A stretch of DNA of 64,000 nucleotides from positions 54,890 through 118,889 of the forward strand of contig WYBU01000019.1 of the NCBI GenBank assembly GCA_011525745.1. The letters run 5' to 3'. The notes beneath the pieces are model-generated. The model was not told the origin of the DNA and did not search any database. It saw only the letters and a list, made by a program, of their open reading frames with translations. Below are positions 18,558 to 25,535 of this stretch, piece by piece. The DNA is from Planctomycetaceae bacterium (GTDB lineage: Bacteria > Planctomycetota > Phycisphaerae > UBA1845 > UTPLA1). Position numbers and translations under genes: made by a program. Numbering within the stretch: position 1 is the first letter of the stretch; every line of letters starts with the position of its first letter.

Positions 18558-19370
18558 ATGACCCCGGCCGTTCGCCGTCCCATCCCGTCGCCCGCCCTGC
18601 TGCGCACGCTCGAAGAGAACGTCCGCCGCATCGAGGGCGGCTTCGGCCGGCGCGACCAGCGGCGGCACCTTCCCACCGGCCTGGCCGCGCTCGACGCGGC
18701 GCTGCCCGGCGGCGGCCTGGCGGCCGGCGCGATCCACGAGCTTCTCAGCGAAACCGACGGCGCCGGGTCGTGGACCTGGGCGCTGTGGCTGGCGGCGCGG
18801 GCGGCCGAAGGGGGTTTGCCCGCGCACGCCGGCCGTGGCGCCTCATCCGCGCCTTCGCGGCGCGAGCGCAGCCCGCCCGGCGGTTACCTGGTCTGGCTCG
18901 ACGGCCCGCGCGAGTTTTATCCCCCCGCCGCCGCGGCATGGGGTATCGACCCGGCCCGGCTGGTGATCGTCCGCCCCGCCGACGCGCGCGAGGCCTATTG
19001 GATCATCGACCAGACGCTGCGCTGCCCCGCCGTGGCGGCCGTCATCGCCGCGCCGCCGCCGATGCAGCGAGCCGAAGCGCGGCGCCTGCAACTGGCGGCC
19101 GAGGCAGGCGGCGGCGTCGGACTGCTCCTGCACGCTCGCCCGGGGCAAGCCGGCGACAGCGGCGCGGTTTCGCGCTGGCGGATCGCCCCGGCGCCGTCGG
19201 CCGCGACGGAGACGCGCCGATTCCGCGTAACGGTCGAGCGCTGCCGCGGCGGCGCCGCCCCGCCGCCCGTCCTGATCGAGGTGGACCATGTCGCGGGTCT
19301 TGTCGCTGTATCTGCCGTACTGGCCGATCGAACGGAGCCGGCGGCGGCAGCCGACGTCTTCGCGGCGTGA
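18558..19370 (+). CDS. imuA: ImuA, RecA-like accessory of the mutasome
   Basis: A 270-residue RecA-fold relative. The N-terminal region has LPTGLAALDAALPGGGLAAG followed by AIHELLS, the usual ImuA/SulA-like opening, where the P-loop is lost. Later strands are GYLVWLDGPREFYPPAAAAW and LVIVRPADAREAYWIIDQTL (~130-155), then CPAVAAVIAAPP. The identification rests on family resemblance and on the imuB and dnaE2 genes that follow. ImuA supports damage-induced translesion synthesis by the ImuB-DnaE2 complex. It overlaps imuB by 83 bases. Confidence 0.87.
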   Translation: MTPAVRRPIPSPALLRTLEENVRRIEGGFGRRDQRRHLPTGLAALDAALPGGGLAAGAIHELLSETDGAGSWTWALWLAARAAEGGLPAHAGRGASSAPSRRERSPPGGYLVWLDGPREFYPPAAAAWGIDPARLVIVRPADAREAYWIIDQTLRCPAVAAVIAAPPPMQRAEARRLQLAAEAGGGVGLLLHARPGQAGDSGAVSRWRIAPAPSAATETRRFRVTVERCRGGAAPPPVLIEVDHVAGLVAVSAVLADRTEPAAAADVFAA

Positions 19371-20823
19371 CCCGTTGCTGCTGATCGAGCGAACCGGCAA
19401 CACGCAACGCGTCGCGGCCTGCTCGGCCGAGGCGGTCGCGCGCGGCGTGCGCCCCGGCGTGACGCTGGCGCACGCGCAGGCGTTGGTTCCCGAGGCCGAC
19501 ACCGCGCCGTTCGACGCCGCCGGCGACGCCGCGGCGCTGCACGCCCTGGCGCTGTGGGCGATGCGCTTCGCTCCGGCCGTGGCGCTCGATCCGCCCGATG
19601 CCTTGCTGCTCGACGTGACCGGCTGCGCCCGGCTGTTCGGCGGCGACTTGCGGTTGTTGAACCAGGCCGCCGATGCGGTGGAGCGGCTGGCCTTTACGGT
19701 GAGGGCCGCGCTGGCCGACACGGTCGGCGCGGCGTGGGCGCTGTCCCACGGGGGTGACGAGCCGCGTGCCCTCGTCCCCCCGGGGCAGTGTTACGCCGCA
19801 CTGGCGCATCTGCCGCCGTGGACGTTGCGTCTGTCGCCCGAAATCCTCGACCGGCTCGACGCGCTCGGATTGCAGCGCATCGAGTCGCTGCTGATGCTGC
19901 CGCGCGCGACGCTGCCGGCGCGGTTCGGCGACAAATTGCTGCTGCGCATCGACCAAGCGCTGGGCCGCGCGACCGAGCTGCTGTCGCCGGTCCGCCCCCC
20001 GCCGCAGGCCGCCGCGCGGATGAACTTCGAGCACGCCGTGACCGACCGCCGCACGCTCGAATATGCGCTGGCGCCGGTGCTGGTCGACTTCGTCGCGCAA
20101 CTGACGCGCCAGGGACGCGGCGCGCGGCGCATCGAACTGTCGCTGTTCCGCGAGCGCAACGTTCCGCTGTCGCGAAGCATCTGCCTCTGCGCGCCGAACC
20201 GCGCGATCGGGCATCTGAGCGGCCTGCTGCGGGCGCAGCTTGAGCGCATGGACCCGGCCGATGGCGTGGTTTGTCTCGAGCTGGCGGCCATCGAGACCGG
20301 GCTGATCGTGGCGGCCCAGGGCGATTTTTTCGAAGACGATCGCTCCGTCGCCGCCGAAGCCGCCGCCGAACTGTTCGACCGCCTGACGGCGCGCTGCGGA
20401 TCGGATCGCGTCTTCCGGCCGGGACTGGTGGAATCGCACCGGCCCGAAAAGGCGTGGCGCGCCGAGGCGATTTCGTCGCCGCGCAGCGCTCGATCGGGCG
20501 CGGGCGACCGCGCATCAGCCGCGCTGCTTTCCGATCCGCGAATCTCGGTTCCCGATCTTCGCCCGTTGCGCCTGCTGCCGCGGCCGGTCCCGATTCAGGC
20601 GATGGCCGTTGTGCCCGATCAGCCGCCGATGTGGTTTCGCTATCGCGGGCGCGAACATCGCACGCGCCGCGGCATCGGCCCCGAACGGCTGTCGGGCGAA
20701 TGGTGGACCGGCGAGAAGGAAAGTCGCGATTACTACCGCGTCGAAACCGAAAACGGGGCATGGTTCTGGGTCTTTCGCGAAGAAACGTCGGGGCAATGGT
20801 ATTTGCACGGAATTCACGAGTGA
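19288..20823 (+). CDS. imuB: ImuB, inactive Y-family polymerase-like mutasome scaffold
   Basis: A 511-residue Y-family protein. Where active enzymes have DxDxFFAxVE, this has LSLYLPYWPIERSRR, so the first catalytic Asp is gone, as expected for ImuB. The second acidic block is replaced by LLLDVTGCARLFGG. Helix-hairpin-helix segments lie at LRLSPEILDRLDALGLQRIE (~185-205). The C-terminal part (~400-511) has the ImuB tail, including VVPDQPPMWFRYRGR and EWWTGEKESRDYYRVET. It links ImuA and DnaE2 to the clamp. The start overlaps imuA. Confidence 0.9.
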   Translation: MSRVLSLYLPYWPIERSRRRQPTSSRRDPLLLIERTGNTQRVAACSAEAVARGVRPGVTLAHAQALVPEADTAPFDAAGDAAALHALALWAMRFAPAVALDPPDALLLDVTGCARLFGGDLRLLNQAADAVERLAFTVRAALADTVGAAWALSHGGDEPRALVPPGQCYAALAHLPPWTLRLSPEILDRLDALGLQRIESLLMLPRATLPARFGDKLLLRIDQALGRATELLSPVRPPPQAAARMNFEHAVTDRRTLEYALAPVLVDFVAQLTRQGRGARRIELSLFRERNVPLSRSICLCAPNRAIGHLSGLLRAQLERMDPADGVVCLELAAIETGLIVAAQGDFFEDDRSVAAEAAAELFDRLTARCGSDRVFRPGLVESHRPEKAWRAEAISSPRSARSGAGDRASAALLSDPRISVPDLRPLRLLPRPVPIQAMAVVPDQPPMWFRYRGREHRTRRGIGPERLSGEWWTGEKESRDYYRVETENGAWFWVFREETSGQWYLHGIHE

Positions 20824-21194
20824 CGAATTATATCCAAACGGCGGGTCCGCTGTGCGGATCGACGCATCGCGTGGCACGGGCTTGTAGCCCGTGCGAATCA
20901 GAGCCGCGCAGCGTCAGCAAGCGGGATCCGCACGCCGAGAAGGAGAATGAACCGTGCGCTGGCACACGCACGCTCGAAGCCTGCCGGCGCGCTGAGCGTA
21001 TGCTTCTCGATCGAGGCGTTGAATAAGAGGCGCAGCCGCCCCATCCCGCTCGCTTACGCTTCGCGGCTCTGAAATCGGTGGCTTACGCTTCGCGGAATCC
21101 CGCCGCTTGCGCGGCGAGTTTCGACGGCCGCAGCGCTTGCGGCTCGAAACAACGGTCATGGTCCTCACAGCGGACCCTACAAACGTCATTTGCC
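20824..21194 (+). repeat. 204-bp dispersed element, copy B, in the imuB-dnaE2 gap
   Basis: The element itself spans 20869-21072. It opens with GCGTGGCACGGGCTTGTAGC, a hairpin word, then the ~30-bp core GAGCCGCGCAGCGTCAGCAA..., and ends with its imperfect inverted copy, CGCTTACGCTTCGCGGCTCTG. The two ends differ at three or so positions over 30. A spare right-end word (GCTTACGCTTCGCGG) follows at ~21079-21093. It has the same length as the copy inside dnaE2. The rest of the gap to 21194 shows no gene. Confidence 0.8.
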
Positions 21195-24100
21195 ATGTTC
21201 ACACACTACGCCGAACTGCAATGCACGACTAACTACTCCTATCTCCGCGGCGCTTCGCACCCGGAAGAACTGGTGAAACAGGCCGCCCAACTGGGACTGT
21301 ACGCCCTCGCGATTACCGACGAAAACACGCTCGGCGGAGTCGTCCGAGCACACTCGGCCGCCAAAGACGCAGGACTGAAGCTTCTCATCGGCGCCCGCAT
21401 CACGCCCGTCGACGGCCCCGACGTATTGCTCTATGCAACCAACCGCGCCGCCTACGGCCGTCTGGCTCGATTGATCACGATCGGCAAATCCAACGCGATT
21501 CAACCGCCCCGGACAACCGCCCCATCCTCCGCCGATCGCATCGAAAAAGGGACCTGCCGCCTGAGTGTCGACGACATCGTCGCGCATTCCGACGATCTCA
21601 TCGCCCTCGTGTCTCCCTTTTCGCGCACGCGAAGCGAATCCACTCAGCCGTCTCCCATTCCTCCCGCCCTGATCGACGCCTTTCGCGGTCGCCTCTACAT
21701 CGCCGCCACGCGCCCCTATGGCCCCGACGACGCCGCACGGCTGCGCGACCTGCGCTGCCTGGCCGACGCACATCGCCTGCCGCTGGCCGCCACCAACGAC
21801 GTGCACTATCACGCCCCCGCCCGCCGGCAAATGCAGGACGCGCTGACCTGCATTCGCGAACGATGCGCTATTTCGGAGGCGGGTTATCGTCTCTTTGCCA
21901 ACGCCGAGCGTCATCTCAAGCCGGCCGACGAAATGTGCCGACTGTTCCGCGACATGCCCGCGGCCATCGACGCCACGACCGAAATCACCGATCGCTGCCG
22001 TTTCAGCCTCGACGAACTGCGCTACGAATATCCCGTCGAAATCGCCCCGTCCGGCCTGACGCCGATGGCCCATCTGACGCAACTGACCTGGCGAGGCGCG
22101 CGGGAGCGCTTCCCCGACGGCACGCCCGACAAGGTCCGCCGGCAGATCGAACATGAGCTGCAACTCATCGAAGAACTGAGCTATGAAGCCTATTTCCTGA
22201 CGGTCTATGACGTGGTGCGCTTCGCGCGGTCGCGCGGCATTCTCTGCCAGGGGCGCGGCTCGGCGGCCAATTCGGCGGTGTGCTACTGCATCGGCGTCAC
22301 TTCGGTCGATCCGGCTCGCGTCGATCTGCTCTTTGAGCGATTCATCTCGCGCGAGCGGAATGAGCCGCCGGACATTGACGTCGACTTCGAGCATGAACGG
22401 CGCGAGGAAGTCATTCAATACATTTATGCCCGCTTCGGCCGCGATCGCGCCGGACTGACGGCGGAGAACATCACCTATCGCCCGCGTTCCGCCGTGCGCG
22501 ACGTCGGCAAGGCGCTGGGACTGTCGCTGGACTGCGTCGATCGTCTGGCGCGCTCCTGCGACTGGTGGGACGCCGAGGCGCTGCCGGCCGGGCGCCTGGC
22601 GGAACTGGGCCTCGATCCGGCGCGGCATACGACGCAACTGCTGGTGAAACTGACGCGCACATTGCTCACGTTTCCGCGCCATCGTTCGCAGCACGTCGGC
22701 GGCTTTGTCATCACGCGCGGCCCGCTCTGCGAGCTGGTCCCGATCGAAAACGCCGCCATGCCCGACCGCACCGTCATCGAATGGGACAAAGACGACATCG
22801 ATGCGCTGGGCATTCTGAAGGTAGACGTGCTGGGATTGGGGATGTTGACGGCGATTGGAAGGGCGTTTCGCATGGTGGAAGGGCGTGGGGGAATGAGGCA
22901 CGAAGGCACGAAGGCACGAAGGCACGAAGGGGAGGAAGAAGAGAGGCACGAAGGCACGGAGGCACGAAGGCACGAAGGGGAGGAAGAAGAGAGGCACGAA
23001 GGCACGGAGGCACGAAGGCACGAAGGGGAGGAAGAAGAGAGGCACGAAGGCACGGAGGCACGAGACGAGGGAGAAGAGGGGGCATTACGGTACGAGACGG
23101 ATGGGGCGGGACAGAAAGACGCGCGATGTGCCGGTGCCGGCTTATGTGGCCTCGCGTATGATGCGGCCAACTCGCCGTGTTGGGTATCGTGCGAAAGGGA
23201 CCAAGGTCATGGCAACCATTCGGAATTTCCGAGACCTCGTGGCGTGGCAAAAGGGAATGAAATTGGCCAGGGCCGTTTATCGAGCAAGCGAGACGATGCC
23301 CAAAACGGAACTTTTTGGATTGAGGATTCAAATGCGACGCTCGGCTGTGTCCGTTCCCTCCAACATCGCGGAGGGTTATGGACGGCAGAGCAGGTCGGAT
23401 TATTTGCGACACCTGCGAATTGCGAGGGGATCGTTGGCGGAACTGGCCACACAATACGAACTGGCGGCCGATATGAGAATGATCGACGAGGATCCGGAAC
23501 TTACCCTGCTGCTTGCCGAGGAGGATCGGATTCTGCAGGCTCTGATTCGCAGTCTGGAGAAGACGCCGGCGCAGGCCCACCCGAAAGCGGACGACATCGT
23601 AGTGGGTTGACAAACAAGGGCCACGATGCTGATGCTCTGCGCGAACTCGGCACGCTCTCCGCGCCACCCTGCCAGCATCCCGATGAAAGCGCCGCCCCCC
23701 CTCCTTGCGTTGGTACCTCTTCCTCTCTTCCCCTTCGTGCCTTCGTGCCTTCGTGCCTTCGTGCCTCTTCCCCCGCCGTCGTTCCGTCGCTTGCGCTGCA
23801 CACGGTTCCTCCCGAAGACCCCGCCGTCTACGACATGATCTGCCGCGCCGATACGGTCGGCGTCTTTCAAATCGAAAGCCGCGGACAAATGAGCATGTTG
23901 CCCCGGCTCAAACCGCGCAACTTCTACGATCTGGTCATCGAAGTCGCCATCCTGCGACCCGGTCCCATTCAGGGCAACATGGTTCATCCCTTCCTGCGCC
24001 GCCGCAATGGCGAAGAGCCGGCCACGTATCCCAACGACGCCGTTCGCGCCGTGCTCGAAAAAACCCTCGGCGTCCCCCTGTTTCAGGAACAGGTCATGCG

Positions 24101-25535
24101 ACTGGCTGTCGTCGCCGCGGGCTTCACCGGCGGCGAGGCCGATCGGCTGCGCCGCGCCATGGCCGCCTTCCGCCGTTACGGCGAGGTCGAGCAGTTCTAT
24201 CAGCGATTTGTCGAGGGAATGCTGGCCAACGGCTACGAGCGCGCATTGGCCGATCAATTGTTCGATCAGATTCGTGGTTTCGGAGCATATGGATTTCCGG
24301 AGAGCCATGCGGCTTCGTTCGCGCTGCTGGTCTATGTGTCGGCCTGGCTGAAGCGCTATCACCCCGCGGCATTCACGGCCGCGCTGCTCAACAGTCAGCC
24401 GATGGGATTCTATGCGCCGGCCCAGCTTGTGCGCGATGCGCGCGAGCACGGCGTCGAGGTGCGCGGCGTCGATGTCAACGAAAGCGAATGGGACTGCGCG
24501 CTGGAGGACGCATCATCTGCCAATTCTCATTCTTTGACTCACGAACTTGCAGCCCATGATTCTCGCGTGGCACGGGCTTGTGGCCCGTGCGCATCCGAGC
24601 CGCGCGGCGTAAGCAAGCGGGATCCGCACGCCGAGAAGGAATGTGAATTGTTCGCGCGTGTGCGTGCGCCCGAGACCGAGCGGCGCGCCGAGTACACACT
24701 GCAAGATCGAAGAGTCGCACATGAAGCCGAATCCCCCCCTCCCGCTCGCTCACGCTTCGCGGCTCTGAATGCCGCTGCGCCCGCCGGCGATTCCCCCGCC
24801 GACTGGGGCCGCAGCGGCCCCGCAATGCGACTCGGGTTGCGCATGGTGAAGGGACTGCCGCAGACCATCGCCGAAGCAATCACGGCCGCGCGCAAAGCGG
24901 GCGGACCGTTTCGCTCGATGGCCGATTTGGCCCGCCGGGCTGGTCTGGGGCGCGCCACGCTGGAACGACTGGCGCGGGCCAATGCGTTTGCCGGAATGGG
25001 ACTGCACCGCCGCGCCGCGCTGTGGGAAATCCTGGCGTTGGATCGCGCATCCGGCCAGACGCCGCTGTTCGACGCCCTGACGTCCGACGAGCCGGCCGTG
25101 GAACTGCCGGACATGCCCCTGGGCCAGGGACTGGTCTATGACTATCACATGGTCGGCCTGTCTCTCGAAGCCCATCCGGTCGAACTGGCCCGCAATGAAC
25201 TGGATCGCCGCGGCGTCATTTCCGCCGGCGAAATCGCCGACATTGCCACAGGCCGCTGGGTGCGCGTGGCGGGATTGGTGATCTGCCGCCAGCGCCCCGA
25301 GACGGCCCACGGTGTCATGTTCGTCACACTGGAAGACGAAACGGGAACGGCCAACATCATTGTCCGGCCGCCGGCGTTTGAGAAACAACGCCGCCAATGG
25401 GTCGGAGCGTCGATGCTGAGCGTCTTCGGTCGCATCGAGCGTCAGGGCGCCGTCACGCACATCCTCGCGCGGAACGCGGAAGACTGCACCGACCTGCTGC
25501 CCCGCGTGACGGTGCGATCCAGGAATTTCCATTGA
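21195..25535 (+). CDS. dnaE2: DnaE2, error-prone C-family DNA polymerase with two in-frame insertions
   Basis: A 1446-residue alpha-subunit polymerase of the DnaE2 branch, which copies past DNA lesions. The PHP domain opens with YAELQCTTNYSYLRGASHPE (~4-23). The catalytic Asp pair lies in PDIDVDFEHE (~392-401) and the third in KVDVLGLGM (~541). Downstream are DPAVYDMICRADTVGVFQIE, FYDLVIEVAILRPGPIQG and GAYGFPESHAASFALLVYVS. The last part (~1300-1400) is an OB domain (WVRVAGLVICRQRPETAHG). DnaE2 is usually about 1050-1090 residues. The surplus is residues ~568-858, which read through an 873-bp S23-bearing element, and ~1124-1191, which read through a 204-bp repeat. The frame is open throughout. 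ATG 21195 is chosen because MFTHYAEL is the family start. Confidence 0.93.
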   Translation: MFTHYAELQCTTNYSYLRGASHPEELVKQAAQLGLYALAITDENTLGGVVRAHSAAKDAGLKLLIGARITPVDGPDVLLYATNRAAYGRLARLITIGKSNAIQPPRTTAPSSADRIEKGTCRLSVDDIVAHSDDLIALVSPFSRTRSESTQPSPIPPALIDAFRGRLYIAATRPYGPDDAARLRDLRCLADAHRLPLAATNDVHYHAPARRQMQDALTCIRERCAISEAGYRLFANAERHLKPADEMCRLFRDMPAAIDATTEITDRCRFSLDELRYEYPVEIAPSGLTPMAHLTQLTWRGARERFPDGTPDKVRRQIEHELQLIEELSYEAYFLTVYDVVRFARSRGILCQGRGSAANSAVCYCIGVTSVDPARVDLLFERFISRERNEPPDIDVDFEHERREEVIQYIYARFGRDRAGLTAENITYRPRSAVRDVGKALGLSLDCVDRLARSCDWWDAEALPAGRLAELGLDPARHTTQLLVKLTRTLLTFPRHRSQHVGGFVITRGPLCELVPIENAAMPDRTVIEWDKDDIDALGILKVDVLGLGMLTAIGRAFRMVEGRGGMRHEGTKARRHEGEEEERHEGTEARRHEGEEEERHEGTEARRHEGEEEERHEGTEARDEGEEGALRYETDGAGQKDARCAGAGLCGLAYDAANSPCWVSCERDQGHGNHSEFPRPRGVAKGNEIGQGRLSSKRDDAQNGTFWIEDSNATLGCVRSLQHRGGLWTAEQVGLFATPANCEGIVGGTGHTIRTGGRYENDRRGSGTYPAACRGGSDSAGSDSQSGEDAGAGPPESGRHRSGLTNKGHDADALRELGTLSAPPCQHPDESAAPPPCVGTSSSLPLRAFVPSCLRASSPAVVPSLALHTVPPEDPAVYDMICRADTVGVFQIESRGQMSMLPRLKPRNFYDLVIEVAILRPGPIQGNMVHPFLRRRNGEEPATYPNDAVRAVLEKTLGVPLFQEQVMRLAVVAAGFTGGEADRLRRAMAAFRRYGEVEQFYQRFVEGMLANGYERALADQLFDQIRGFGAYGFPESHAASFALLVYVSAWLKRYHPAAFTAALLNSQPMGFYAPAQLVRDAREHGVEVRGVDVNESEWDCALEDASSANSHSLTHELAAHDSRVARACGPCASEPRGVSKRDPHAEKECELFARVRAPETERRAEYTLQDRRVAHEAESPPPARSRFAALNAAAPAGDSPADWGRSGPAMRLGLRMVKGLPQTIAEAITAARKAGGPFRSMADLARRAGLGRATLERLARANAFAGMGLHRRAALWEILALDRASGQTPLFDALTSDEPAVELPDMPLGQGLVYDYHMVGLSLEAHPVELARNELDRRGVISAGEIADIATGRWVRVAGLVICRQRPETAHGVMFVTLEDETGTANIIVRPPAFEKQRRQWVGASMLSVFGRIERQGAVTHILARNAEDCTDLLPRVTVRSRNFH
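22896..23070 (+). repeat. 48-bp tandem repeat, about 3.5 copies
   Basis: Each unit is four 8-base GGCACGAA or GGCACGGA words plus GGGGAGGAAGAAGAG. The units start at 22896, 22944 and 22992, with a partial copy from 23040. In the dnaE2 frame each unit codes for 16 residues (RHEGTEARRHEGEEEE). The first unit also supplies the left inverted arm of the element. Confidence 0.92.
23209..23610 (+). CDS. Four-helix-bundle protein of the S23/IVP family, nested in dnaE2
   Basis: A 133-residue protein. It has the full family pattern: FRDLVAWQKGMKLARAVYRA (~6-25), MPKTELFGLRIQMRRSAVSV (~30-49), PSNIAEGYGRQSRSDYLRHL (~50-69) and RIARGSLAELATQYELA (~70-86), with a longer C-terminal helix. The same family is encoded by intervening sequences of 23S rRNA in Leptospira and others, and is related in fold to the Avd protein of diversity-generating retroelements. 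It reads in the +1 frame relative to dnaE2. The ATG at 23209 has CCAAGG just upstream. The role of the protein is not known; it is basic and may bind nucleic acid. Confidence 0.9.
   Translation: MATIRNFRDLVAWQKGMKLARAVYRASETMPKTELFGLRIQMRRSAVSVPSNIAEGYGRQSRSDYLRHLRIARGSLAELATQYELAADMRMIDEDPELTLLLAEEDRILQALIRSLEKTPAQAHPKADDIVVG
24565..24768 (+). repeat. 204-bp dispersed element, copy C, inside dnaE2
   Basis: It starts with GCGTGGCACGGGCTTGTGGC, then the core CCGAGCCGCGCGGCGTAAGC..., and ends with an inverted copy, CTCACGCTTCGCGGCTCTGA. The length is 204 = 3 x 68, equal to the copy at 20869-21072. In the polymerase frame it codes for residues ~1124-1191, a charged, Arg-rich stretch (SEPRGVSKRDPHAEKE) with no polymerase similarity. 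The family joins NESEWDCALE and GPAMRLGLRMVKGLPQ with a short linker, so this copy was inserted there. Confidence 0.82.

What the first reader, a model, noticed from the sequence alone, without database searches (positions are those of the whole stretch)
22895..23767. S23/IVP element inserted in frame within dnaE2
Seen: dnaE2 is interrupted by 873 bases bounded by perfect 39-base inverted repeats. The insert is a multiple of three and stop-free in the host frame, and it carries a complete four-helix-bundle gene in another frame. Known: S23/IVP genes sit between complementary arms in intervening sequences of 23S rRNA genes, where RNase III trims the stem and the rRNA stays functional in pieces. 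Inference: the same kind of element has landed in a protein gene. Either the polymerase tolerates a ~291-residue insert between its third catalytic motif and the next palm block, or the insert is removed or processed at the RNA level, or DnaE2 works as two chains. This could be a new class of small selfish or regulatory element in coding genes.
Basis: partly seen in the sequence, partly recalled or inferred. Interest (0 to 1): 0.95.

Follow-up and report, generated by a model that had tools for sequence, protein, structure and literature searches.

The report
Dual-frame S23 gene inside DnaE2
In a planctomycete bacterium and many of its relatives, a small gene (S23) bounded by inverted repeats sits inside the mutagenic DNA polymerase gene dnaE2, in a second reading frame, with the polymerase frame left open straight through it; it is likely a mobile element that lives inside working protein genes by being translated through instead of being cut out.

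Summary
dnaE2 (21195-25535) is open across 22895-23767, bounded by exact 39-base inverted repeats, with a PF05635 S23 gene at 23209-23610 in the +1 frame. It is not a one-off. Of 59 dnaE2 loci readable on both sides (58 genomes), 19 carry S23 at this very site, 19 of 19 on the same strand, in the same frame, with the host frame stop-free; the other 40 have short linkers or small S23-less inserts. The same arrangement occurs in DNA methylase genes and one GNAT-like gene. Outside host genes the equivalent frame was open in 1 of 79, 2 of 26 and 2 of 58 S23 genes. In the 19, codons that would create a host-frame stop are absent (0 of 190, against 40% T elsewhere in the same genes). S23 is the frame conserved inside the insert, mostly behind a ribosome-binding site, and dnaE2 downstream remains under purifying selection. 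S23 and dnaE2 identities do not correlate. Best reading: a mobile, IVS-like element persisting in protein genes by dual coding and read-through. Its route of movement is unknown; expression is untested.

The parts
21195..25535 (+). dnaE2 (error-prone Pol III alpha, ImuC), 1446 codons, open through two foreign inserts
   Evidence: NF004225 1397.6 bits; PHP, DNA_pol3_alpha, finger, HHH, OB domains
22895..23767 (+). S23 element, 873 nt, in frame with dnaE2
   Evidence: same site filled in 19 of 59 dnaE2 loci
22895..22933 (+). left perfect 39-base arm
23729..23767 (-). right perfect 39-base arm
22895..23063 (+). left octamer array GGCACGAA/GGCACGGA in four blocks
23209..23610 (+). S23 four-helix-bundle gene in frame +1 of dnaE2 (in-frame ATG also at 23101); predicted four helices, pLDDT 90.7
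   Evidence: 2gsc best match
23194..23199 (+). AAAGGG, weak ribosome-binding-site candidate of this copy (clearer AGGAG-type sites in most other resident copies)
24563..24769 (+). second, unrelated in-frame insert in dnaE2: about 207-nt dispersed repeat, 73 matches in this genome
   Evidence: the same place in 57 readable dnaE2 loci varies from 7 to 154 residues (window 108), several with octamer-array peptides
19288..20823 (+). imuB-like Y-family polymerase gene (PF00817) just upstream, as in an imuB-dnaE2 unit

Best explanation
An 873-nt element with inverted octamer-array arms and an S23 gene sits in frame inside dnaE2, and it likely persists there because ribosomes would translate the polymerase straight through it while the S23 protein is likely made from its own start in the +1 frame. 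Shown by sequence: the insert, the arms, the dual reading frames, recurrence at the same dnaE2 site and in other protein genes, empty sites in relatives, conservation of S23 in its own frame, and continued purifying selection on dnaE2 downstream. Inferred: that DnaE2 is made as one chain with a long, predicted unstructured loop between palm and fingers; that S23 is expressed; and that the unit is mobile. Inferred path: an S23 unit lands in a linker that tolerates a loop, and only copies whose second frame is open or becomes open by silent third-base T-to-C changes survive. How it moves, and what S23 does for it, is not known; the S23 fold resembles the four-helix subunit of a diversity-generating retroelement complex, which is only a lead.
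For: 19 of 59 dnaE2 loci filled at the same site, 19 of 19 same strand, frame +1 and host frame open (the loci were found through the dnaE2 C-terminal half, so openness did not select them). Host-equivalent frame open in only 1 of 79, 2 of 26 and 2 of 58 S23 outside host genes (the sets overlap a little). Synonymous resampling of 24 resident genes with codon usage of GC-rich free S23 expects 3.7 stops per gene, median chance of none 0.019. T-ending codons before AA/AG/GA in the 19: 0 of 190, against 279 of 701 pyrimidine-ending codons in other contexts of the same genes. S23-frame identity 56% against 28.5% in the host frame, changes concentrated on S23 third positions (24 copies). Ribosome-binding site before ATG in 24 of 31 in-gene copies against 28% of control windows. 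dnaE2 downstream of the insert: differences 0.19/0.15/0.46 by codon position, like unfilled relatives. Two resident copies have a stop in S23 but an open host frame. Other hosts: Eco57I-type methylases, N6_N4 methylases, a GNAT-like gene. Arms match each other within a locus in 22 of 24 dnaE2 copies. S23 and dnaE2 identities not correlated (Mantel r 0.12, 896 of 5000 permutations as high). No Rfam intron.
Against: No transcript, ribosome or protein data. The window's own S23 copy has only a weak ribosome-binding site (AAAGGG). Nothing here shows that DnaE2 with a 137-288-residue loop is active. Movement is inferred from patchiness and from trees on 115-117 columns; no target-site duplication was defined, because empty sites are diverged. 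The eight non-dnaE2 host genes, and six of the 25 dnaE2 copies, were found by their open frame, so 'always open' is built in there; the check for broken copies covered only known host genes. Pooled codon and permutation tests ignore relatedness. Free GC-rich S23 also use T less before AA/AG/GA (272 of 1105) than elsewhere (1502 of 3918), so part of the bias is general. Only 45 of 145 free S23 loci and 2 of 7 methylase copies exceed the arm threshold, and cross-locus controls reach 69. The structure model of the filled segment is weak (mean pLDDT 57.1). Twelve dnaE2-resident S23 do form one clade, which fits some vertical inheritance.
Confidence: 0.8

Rival explanations
1. IVS-like RNA processing: RNase III cuts the arm stem of the dnaE2 mRNA, so that DnaE2 works as two chains or is down-regulated, as the 23S rRNA works in pieces.
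For: Uninterrupted 42-pair predicted stem; RNase III excises the S23-bearing IVS of Coxiella in vitro (passages of PMC4990558).
Against: A cut mRNA has no need for an open host frame through the S23 gene, yet 19 of 19 keep it. No start signal for a second chain was looked for. Cleavage as an added, partial regulation is not excluded.
Confidence: 0.1
2. Intron or translational bypass: the insert is spliced out, or ribosomes hop over it (as in mitochondrial byp elements, recalled).
For: Insert bounded by complementary arms; unfilled relatives have a short linker at the site.
Against: No Rfam match at E up to 1 over 22700-23950; an open host frame in every one of the 19 is unneeded for either; no intein or other domain matched the insert in the host frame.
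Confidence: 0.04
3. Ancient vertical insertion, now a DnaE2-specific loop that contains a fossil or domesticated S23 gene; no mobility.
For: 12 resident S23 form one supported clade, 10 of them from one family; dnaE2-resident copies cluster on the tree.
Against: No correlation of S23 and dnaE2 identity among 19 loci; patchy filling within families (3 of 14, 4 of 16, 11 of 20); a separate S23 lineage (L044, L045) at the same site; S23 in unrelated host genes; free copies nested among resident ones.
Confidence: 0.15
4. Decayed or misassembled locus: dnaE2 is a pseudogene and the open frame is chance.
For: Two inserts in one gene; GC-rich sequence has few stops.
Against: Recurrence in 19 of 59 loci and in named public assemblies; purifying selection downstream; codon-level stop avoidance.
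Confidence: 0.02

Closest known systems
Intervening sequences (IVS) of 23S rRNA genes with an S23/IVP gene (Coxiella; others recalled)
   Same: S23 family gene between complementary arms, sitting inside a host gene that stays functional; patchy distribution
   Different: Host is a protein gene; the arms are short-tandem-repeat arrays whose unit differs from locus to locus; the host frame is kept open through the S23 gene; RNase III excision not shown
REP elements inside genes and Rickettsia palindromic elements (RPE)
   Same: Repeats inserted in frame in protein genes; REPs are reported inside DnaE2 and tRNA synthetase genes (passages of PMC3733652)
   Different: Those are short palindromes without a gene; here a whole gene is carried in another frame, 137-288 residues are added, and the arms are octamer arrays
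Short heptamer repeats of Xanthomonas and Nostoc (GGGAATC and relatives; the name STRR is from a search term of mine)
   Same: Arrays of 7-nt units; convergent array pairs are reported in Xanthomonas (passages of PMC4692102)
   Different: S23 does not occur in the main text, the arrays are mostly intergenic and under-represented in coding regions
Inteins and homing introns
   Same: Gene-bearing inserts in conserved genes, empty sites in relatives
   Different: No splicing domain or known ribozyme found; the carried gene is in another frame and is not an endonuclease family
PARCEL coding repeats (PMC2996958, abstract and outline)
   Same: Coding repeats with dyad symmetry, thought to be mobilised
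   Different: A 25-residue repeat motif conserved as peptide; here the host-frame peptide is not what is conserved

Membership tests
23S rRNA IVS with S23/IVP | Carries an S23-family gene (PF05635) | tested here: met
   112 bits; fold match to 2gsc
23S rRNA IVS with S23/IVP | Bounded by complementary terminal arms | tested here: met
   39 exact bases; 22 of 24 dnaE2 copies above the 99% level of 534 cross-locus controls
23S rRNA IVS with S23/IVP | Located in a 23S rRNA gene | tested here: not met
   In dnaE2; no Rfam match in 22700-23950
23S rRNA IVS with S23/IVP | Excised by RNase III, host RNA left in pieces | not testable with these tools
   No RNA data; stem predicted only
REP/RPE in-frame elements | In frame inside a working protein gene | tested here: met
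   In frame in 19 of 19; selection downstream of the insert; activity not tested
REP/RPE in-frame elements | Short palindrome without coding capacity | tested here: not met
   873 nt with a conserved gene
REP/RPE in-frame elements | GTAG or CGTC end tag | not tested
   -
Intein | Self-splicing domain in the host frame | tested here: not met
   No such Pfam or NCBIfam family among the matches of dnaE2 at E up to 0.01
Group I or II intron | Catalytic RNA core | tested here: not met
   No Rfam match at E up to 1
DnaE2 (ImuC) | DnaE2 domain order and family score | tested here: met
   NF004225 1397.6 bits, cut-off 939; Pfam domains

The most novel reading that the evidence does not exclude
A class of mobile, gene-bearing elements lives inside bacterial protein genes without splicing: the S23 gene is written so that its second frame never stops, and the host protein is made through it as a long loop while S23 is made from its own start; the same elements sit in DnaE2, DNA methylases and other genes across an order of Planctomycetota, and their arms are locus-specific inverted 7-8-mer arrays.
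Probability: 0.65. Interest if true: 0.93.

Novelty: new variant of a known kind. Interest (0 to 1): 0.88.

Why it matters
As generally understood, selfish DNA inside genes needs splicing (introns, inteins) or a structural RNA host (IVS). This would be a third way: silent codon choice keeps the host's frame open through a complete foreign gene. It makes the old question of what S23 proteins do testable outside rRNA, gives a natural set of overlapping genes with empty sites for comparison, and shows which linkers of a mutagenic polymerase and of DNA methylases accept more than 130 extra residues.

Tried and rejected
Considered and rejected: chance open frame; intron or other known RNA; intein; assembly error (recurrence); pure vertical inheritance. 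Tried without result: a link between the octamer arrays elsewhere in this genome and inverted arms; at the 14 other places none has a partner arm scoring above 25 within about 800 nt, against 92 for the dnaE2 element, so arrays are dispersed and unpaired there. Target-site duplications were not defined. A structure model of the filled DnaE2 segment is too weak for more than saying that the insert has very low confidence. Ten literature searches (open-access library only) listed no paper that I recognised as describing S23 genes between inverted short-tandem arrays or S23 in frame in protein genes; I saw passages of PMC4692102, PMC4990558, PMC4679880 and PMC3733652, the abstract and outline of PMC2996958, and of all others the search listing only. 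Errors of mine: searches used base 23211 instead of 23209, a wrong frame, and were redone; the S23 profile made held that one wrong-frame row among its seeds, which gives a spurious 28-bit match in L001; nine seed candidates with stops were left out there. One region (L187) was mistyped and holds no dnaE2. The script ended with an error while saving, after printing its results; ten of 188 S23 were dropped there for short flanks. Free S23 genes whose second frame is open over the S23 core but closes soon after exist too (L002; L215, L208; L240 at a contig end and L275). A notebook entry of mine gives about 17 octamer places; the count is 14 besides dnaE2.

Full report
WHAT IS THERE. The window (G000:C147:54890-118889, a 5.4-Mb draft genome) carries dnaE2 at 21195-25535, next to an imuB-like gene. 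Between its palm motif KVDVLGLGMLTAI and PPEDPAVYD lies an 873-nt insert, 22895-23767, bounded by exact 39-base inverted repeats that are the ends of arrays of the octamer GGCACGAA. A PF05635/TIGR02436 S23 gene (112 bits; likely start ATG 23209) lies in the +1 frame of dnaE2. The dnaE2 frame has no stop anywhere in the insert. Mapped on E. coli Pol III alpha the insert falls between residues 576 and 582. A model of the S23 protein (30 rows, mean pLDDT 90.7) is a four-helix bundle whose best solved match is Xanthomonas XCC0516 (2gsc), then the S23-family protein 2rld, then the four-helix subunits of a diversity-generating retroelement complex (8ub7, E 0.008). In a model of the filled DnaE2 segment the insert has block pLDDT of about 27-39; that model is weak overall (mean 57.1).

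IT RECURS AT THE SAME SITE. I examined 62 loci: 59 could be read on both sides of the site, 2 on one side only (contig ends), and 1 was a mistyped region. 19 of 59 have an S23 gene at the site: 3 of 14 loci in the window's own family, 11 of 20 and 4 of 16 in two other families, 0 of 1 in a fourth and 1 of 8 elsewhere in the class. All 19 have it on the same strand, in frame +1, with the host frame open; added length is 137-288 residues. The other 40 have -2 to 20 residues at the site, except three with 47, 57 and 72; one of these (L132) is an inverted octamer array without S23, like a deletion derivative. Seven of 80 public loci fetched by S23 similarity (80 of 577 kept) are also dnaE2, one of them cut by a contig end; two of the seven are the same genomes as two of the 19. 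With one more at a contig end, 25 distinct dnaE2 main-site copies are in hand. Two genomes (L181, L184) have a further S23 copy at a second, upstream dnaE2 site. A third place, around the window's second insert, varies from 7 to 154 residues among 57 readable loci and shows octamer-array peptides in several; protein P0001 shows S23-like second-frame peptide there too (by eye).

IT RECURS IN OTHER GENES. That gave 30 loci, and I fetched 60 more listed rows, leaving out those already known to be dnaE2 and a number of lower-scoring ones. In 11 of these 90 the S23 lies within a long ORF of another frame: 3 are dnaE2 (two of them already among the 19), 3 are N6_N4 DNA methylases, 4 are Eco57I-type methylases and 1 is a GNAT-like protein (25.1 bits, below the cut-off of 27). 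The frame is the same in all: host = second frame after S23 (f+2); none of the S23 spans in f+1, and none of 188 lies antisense in an ORF reaching 450 nt to both sides. Three Eco57I-type copies (L233, L238, L262) share one site, just before the catalytic DPACG motif; protein databases hold further such methylases (P0015, P0017, P0020 and P0024 were read by eye). Valyl-tRNA synthetases P0003 and P0012 have several in-frame array inserts without S23 (by eye).

THE HOST FRAME IS KEPT OPEN BY SELECTION. In S23 genes outside host genes the equivalent frame is open in 1 of 79, 2 of 26 and 2 of 58, sets that overlap a little; in the 22 GC-rich ones the median is 3 stops. With codon usage of GC-rich free S23, resident S23 proteins would carry 3.7 stops on average and lack them with a median chance of 0.019 per gene (24 genes; genes are related, so the product is not a probability). 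A stop in this frame always needs a codon ending in T before AA, AG or GA, and every such T can be replaced silently by C. In the 19 found by dnaE2 homology, T is used in 0 of 190 such places and in 279 of 701 pyrimidine-ending codons elsewhere in the same genes. With all 26 dnaE2 copies it is 0 of 257 against 364 of 984, and in other hosts 0 of 52 against 90 of 290, but there the zero is partly built in by how they were found; in GC-rich free S23 it is 272 of 1105 against 1502 of 3918, a milder bias of the same direction. Behind the insert dnaE2 differs by codon position 0.19/0.15/0.46, as in unfilled relatives (0.23/0.18/0.52), so it is still selected as protein. In L148 and in the second copy of L184 the S23 gene has a stop while the host frame stays open.

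S23 IS THE CONSERVED PRODUCT OF THE INSERT. Among 24 copies mean identity is 56% in the S23 frame and 28.5% in the host frame; differences per S23 codon position are 0.35, 0.28 and 0.60. An AGGA/GGAG/GAGG site stands before the ATG in 24 of 31 in-gene copies (28% of control windows) and in 43 of 120 free copies (17%). The window's own copy has only AAAGGG.

ARMS. For 178 of 188 S23 (ten dropped for short flanks) the upstream flank was matched to the reverse complement of its own downstream flank and, as control, to that of other loci of similar GC (534 pairs, 99% level 45, highest 69). Above 45 are 22 of 24 dnaE2 copies, 1 of 1 second-site copy, 45 of 145 free copies, 2 of 7 methylase copies and 0 of 1 other; in direct orientation 8 of 178. 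Of the 70 arms above the level, the best-fitting period is 7 or 8 nt in 67 and 9 in 3, though only 9 pass a 70% periodicity cut with flanks included; units differ between loci although the two arms of a locus agree. In this genome GGCACGAA arrays occur at 14 other places, none with a comparable partner arm.

MOBILITY. On trees of 188 and 53 S23 proteins the in-gene copies cluster, but need several changes (12 and 10); dnaE2 copies need at least 3 by supported branches in the smaller tree, a pair (L044, L045) stands apart, and free copies nest among resident ones. S23 and dnaE2 identities do not correlate over 19 loci (r 0.12; 896 of 5000 permutations as high). This fits repeated arrival or replacement at tolerant linkers better than one old insertion. 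The transposition route is unknown.

COMPARISON. It works like an IVS (S23 gene, arms, host stays functional) and like an RPE or intragenic REP (in frame in a protein gene), but meets the full definition of neither. REPs inside DnaE2 and tRNA synthetases are on record (PMC3733652, passages), so such genes are known to accept short loops; a complete second-frame gene is the new point. This is consistent with the second insert of this dnaE2, 24563-24769, a dispersed repeat with 73 matches in the genome.

Noticed in passing
window 24563-24769: A second, unrelated in-frame insert in the same dnaE2: a dispersed repeat of about 207 nt (73 matches in the genome; another copy just upstream of dnaE2 at 20867-21073). 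The same place is length-variable (7-154 residues) in relatives.
   Followed up: partly
P0003 and P0012 (proteins): Valyl-tRNA synthetases, an essential enzyme, carry several in-frame octamer-array inserts without S23; P0012 also seems to carry a REP-type tyrosine transposase-like stretch in frame between repeats (read by eye).
   Followed up: partly
P0100 and P0024 (proteins): Eco57I-type methylases with a Y1_Tnp (PF01797) transposase domain inside the methylase reading frame.
   Followed up: no
S23 loci in Bacteroidota, Desulfobacterota and others: Some free S23 genes in other phyla sit between inverted 7-8-mer arrays whose unit differs from locus to locus while both arms agree; how the arms stay matched is unexplained.
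   Followed up: partly
G000, the 14 other places: GGCACGAA arrays lie among other short-unit arrays (TTCGACG-like) and have no comparable partner arm.
   Followed up: partly
L181 and L184: dnaE2 open frames of 1748 and 1517 codons with S23 copies at two sites; L181 also has an array-only insert.
   Followed up: partly
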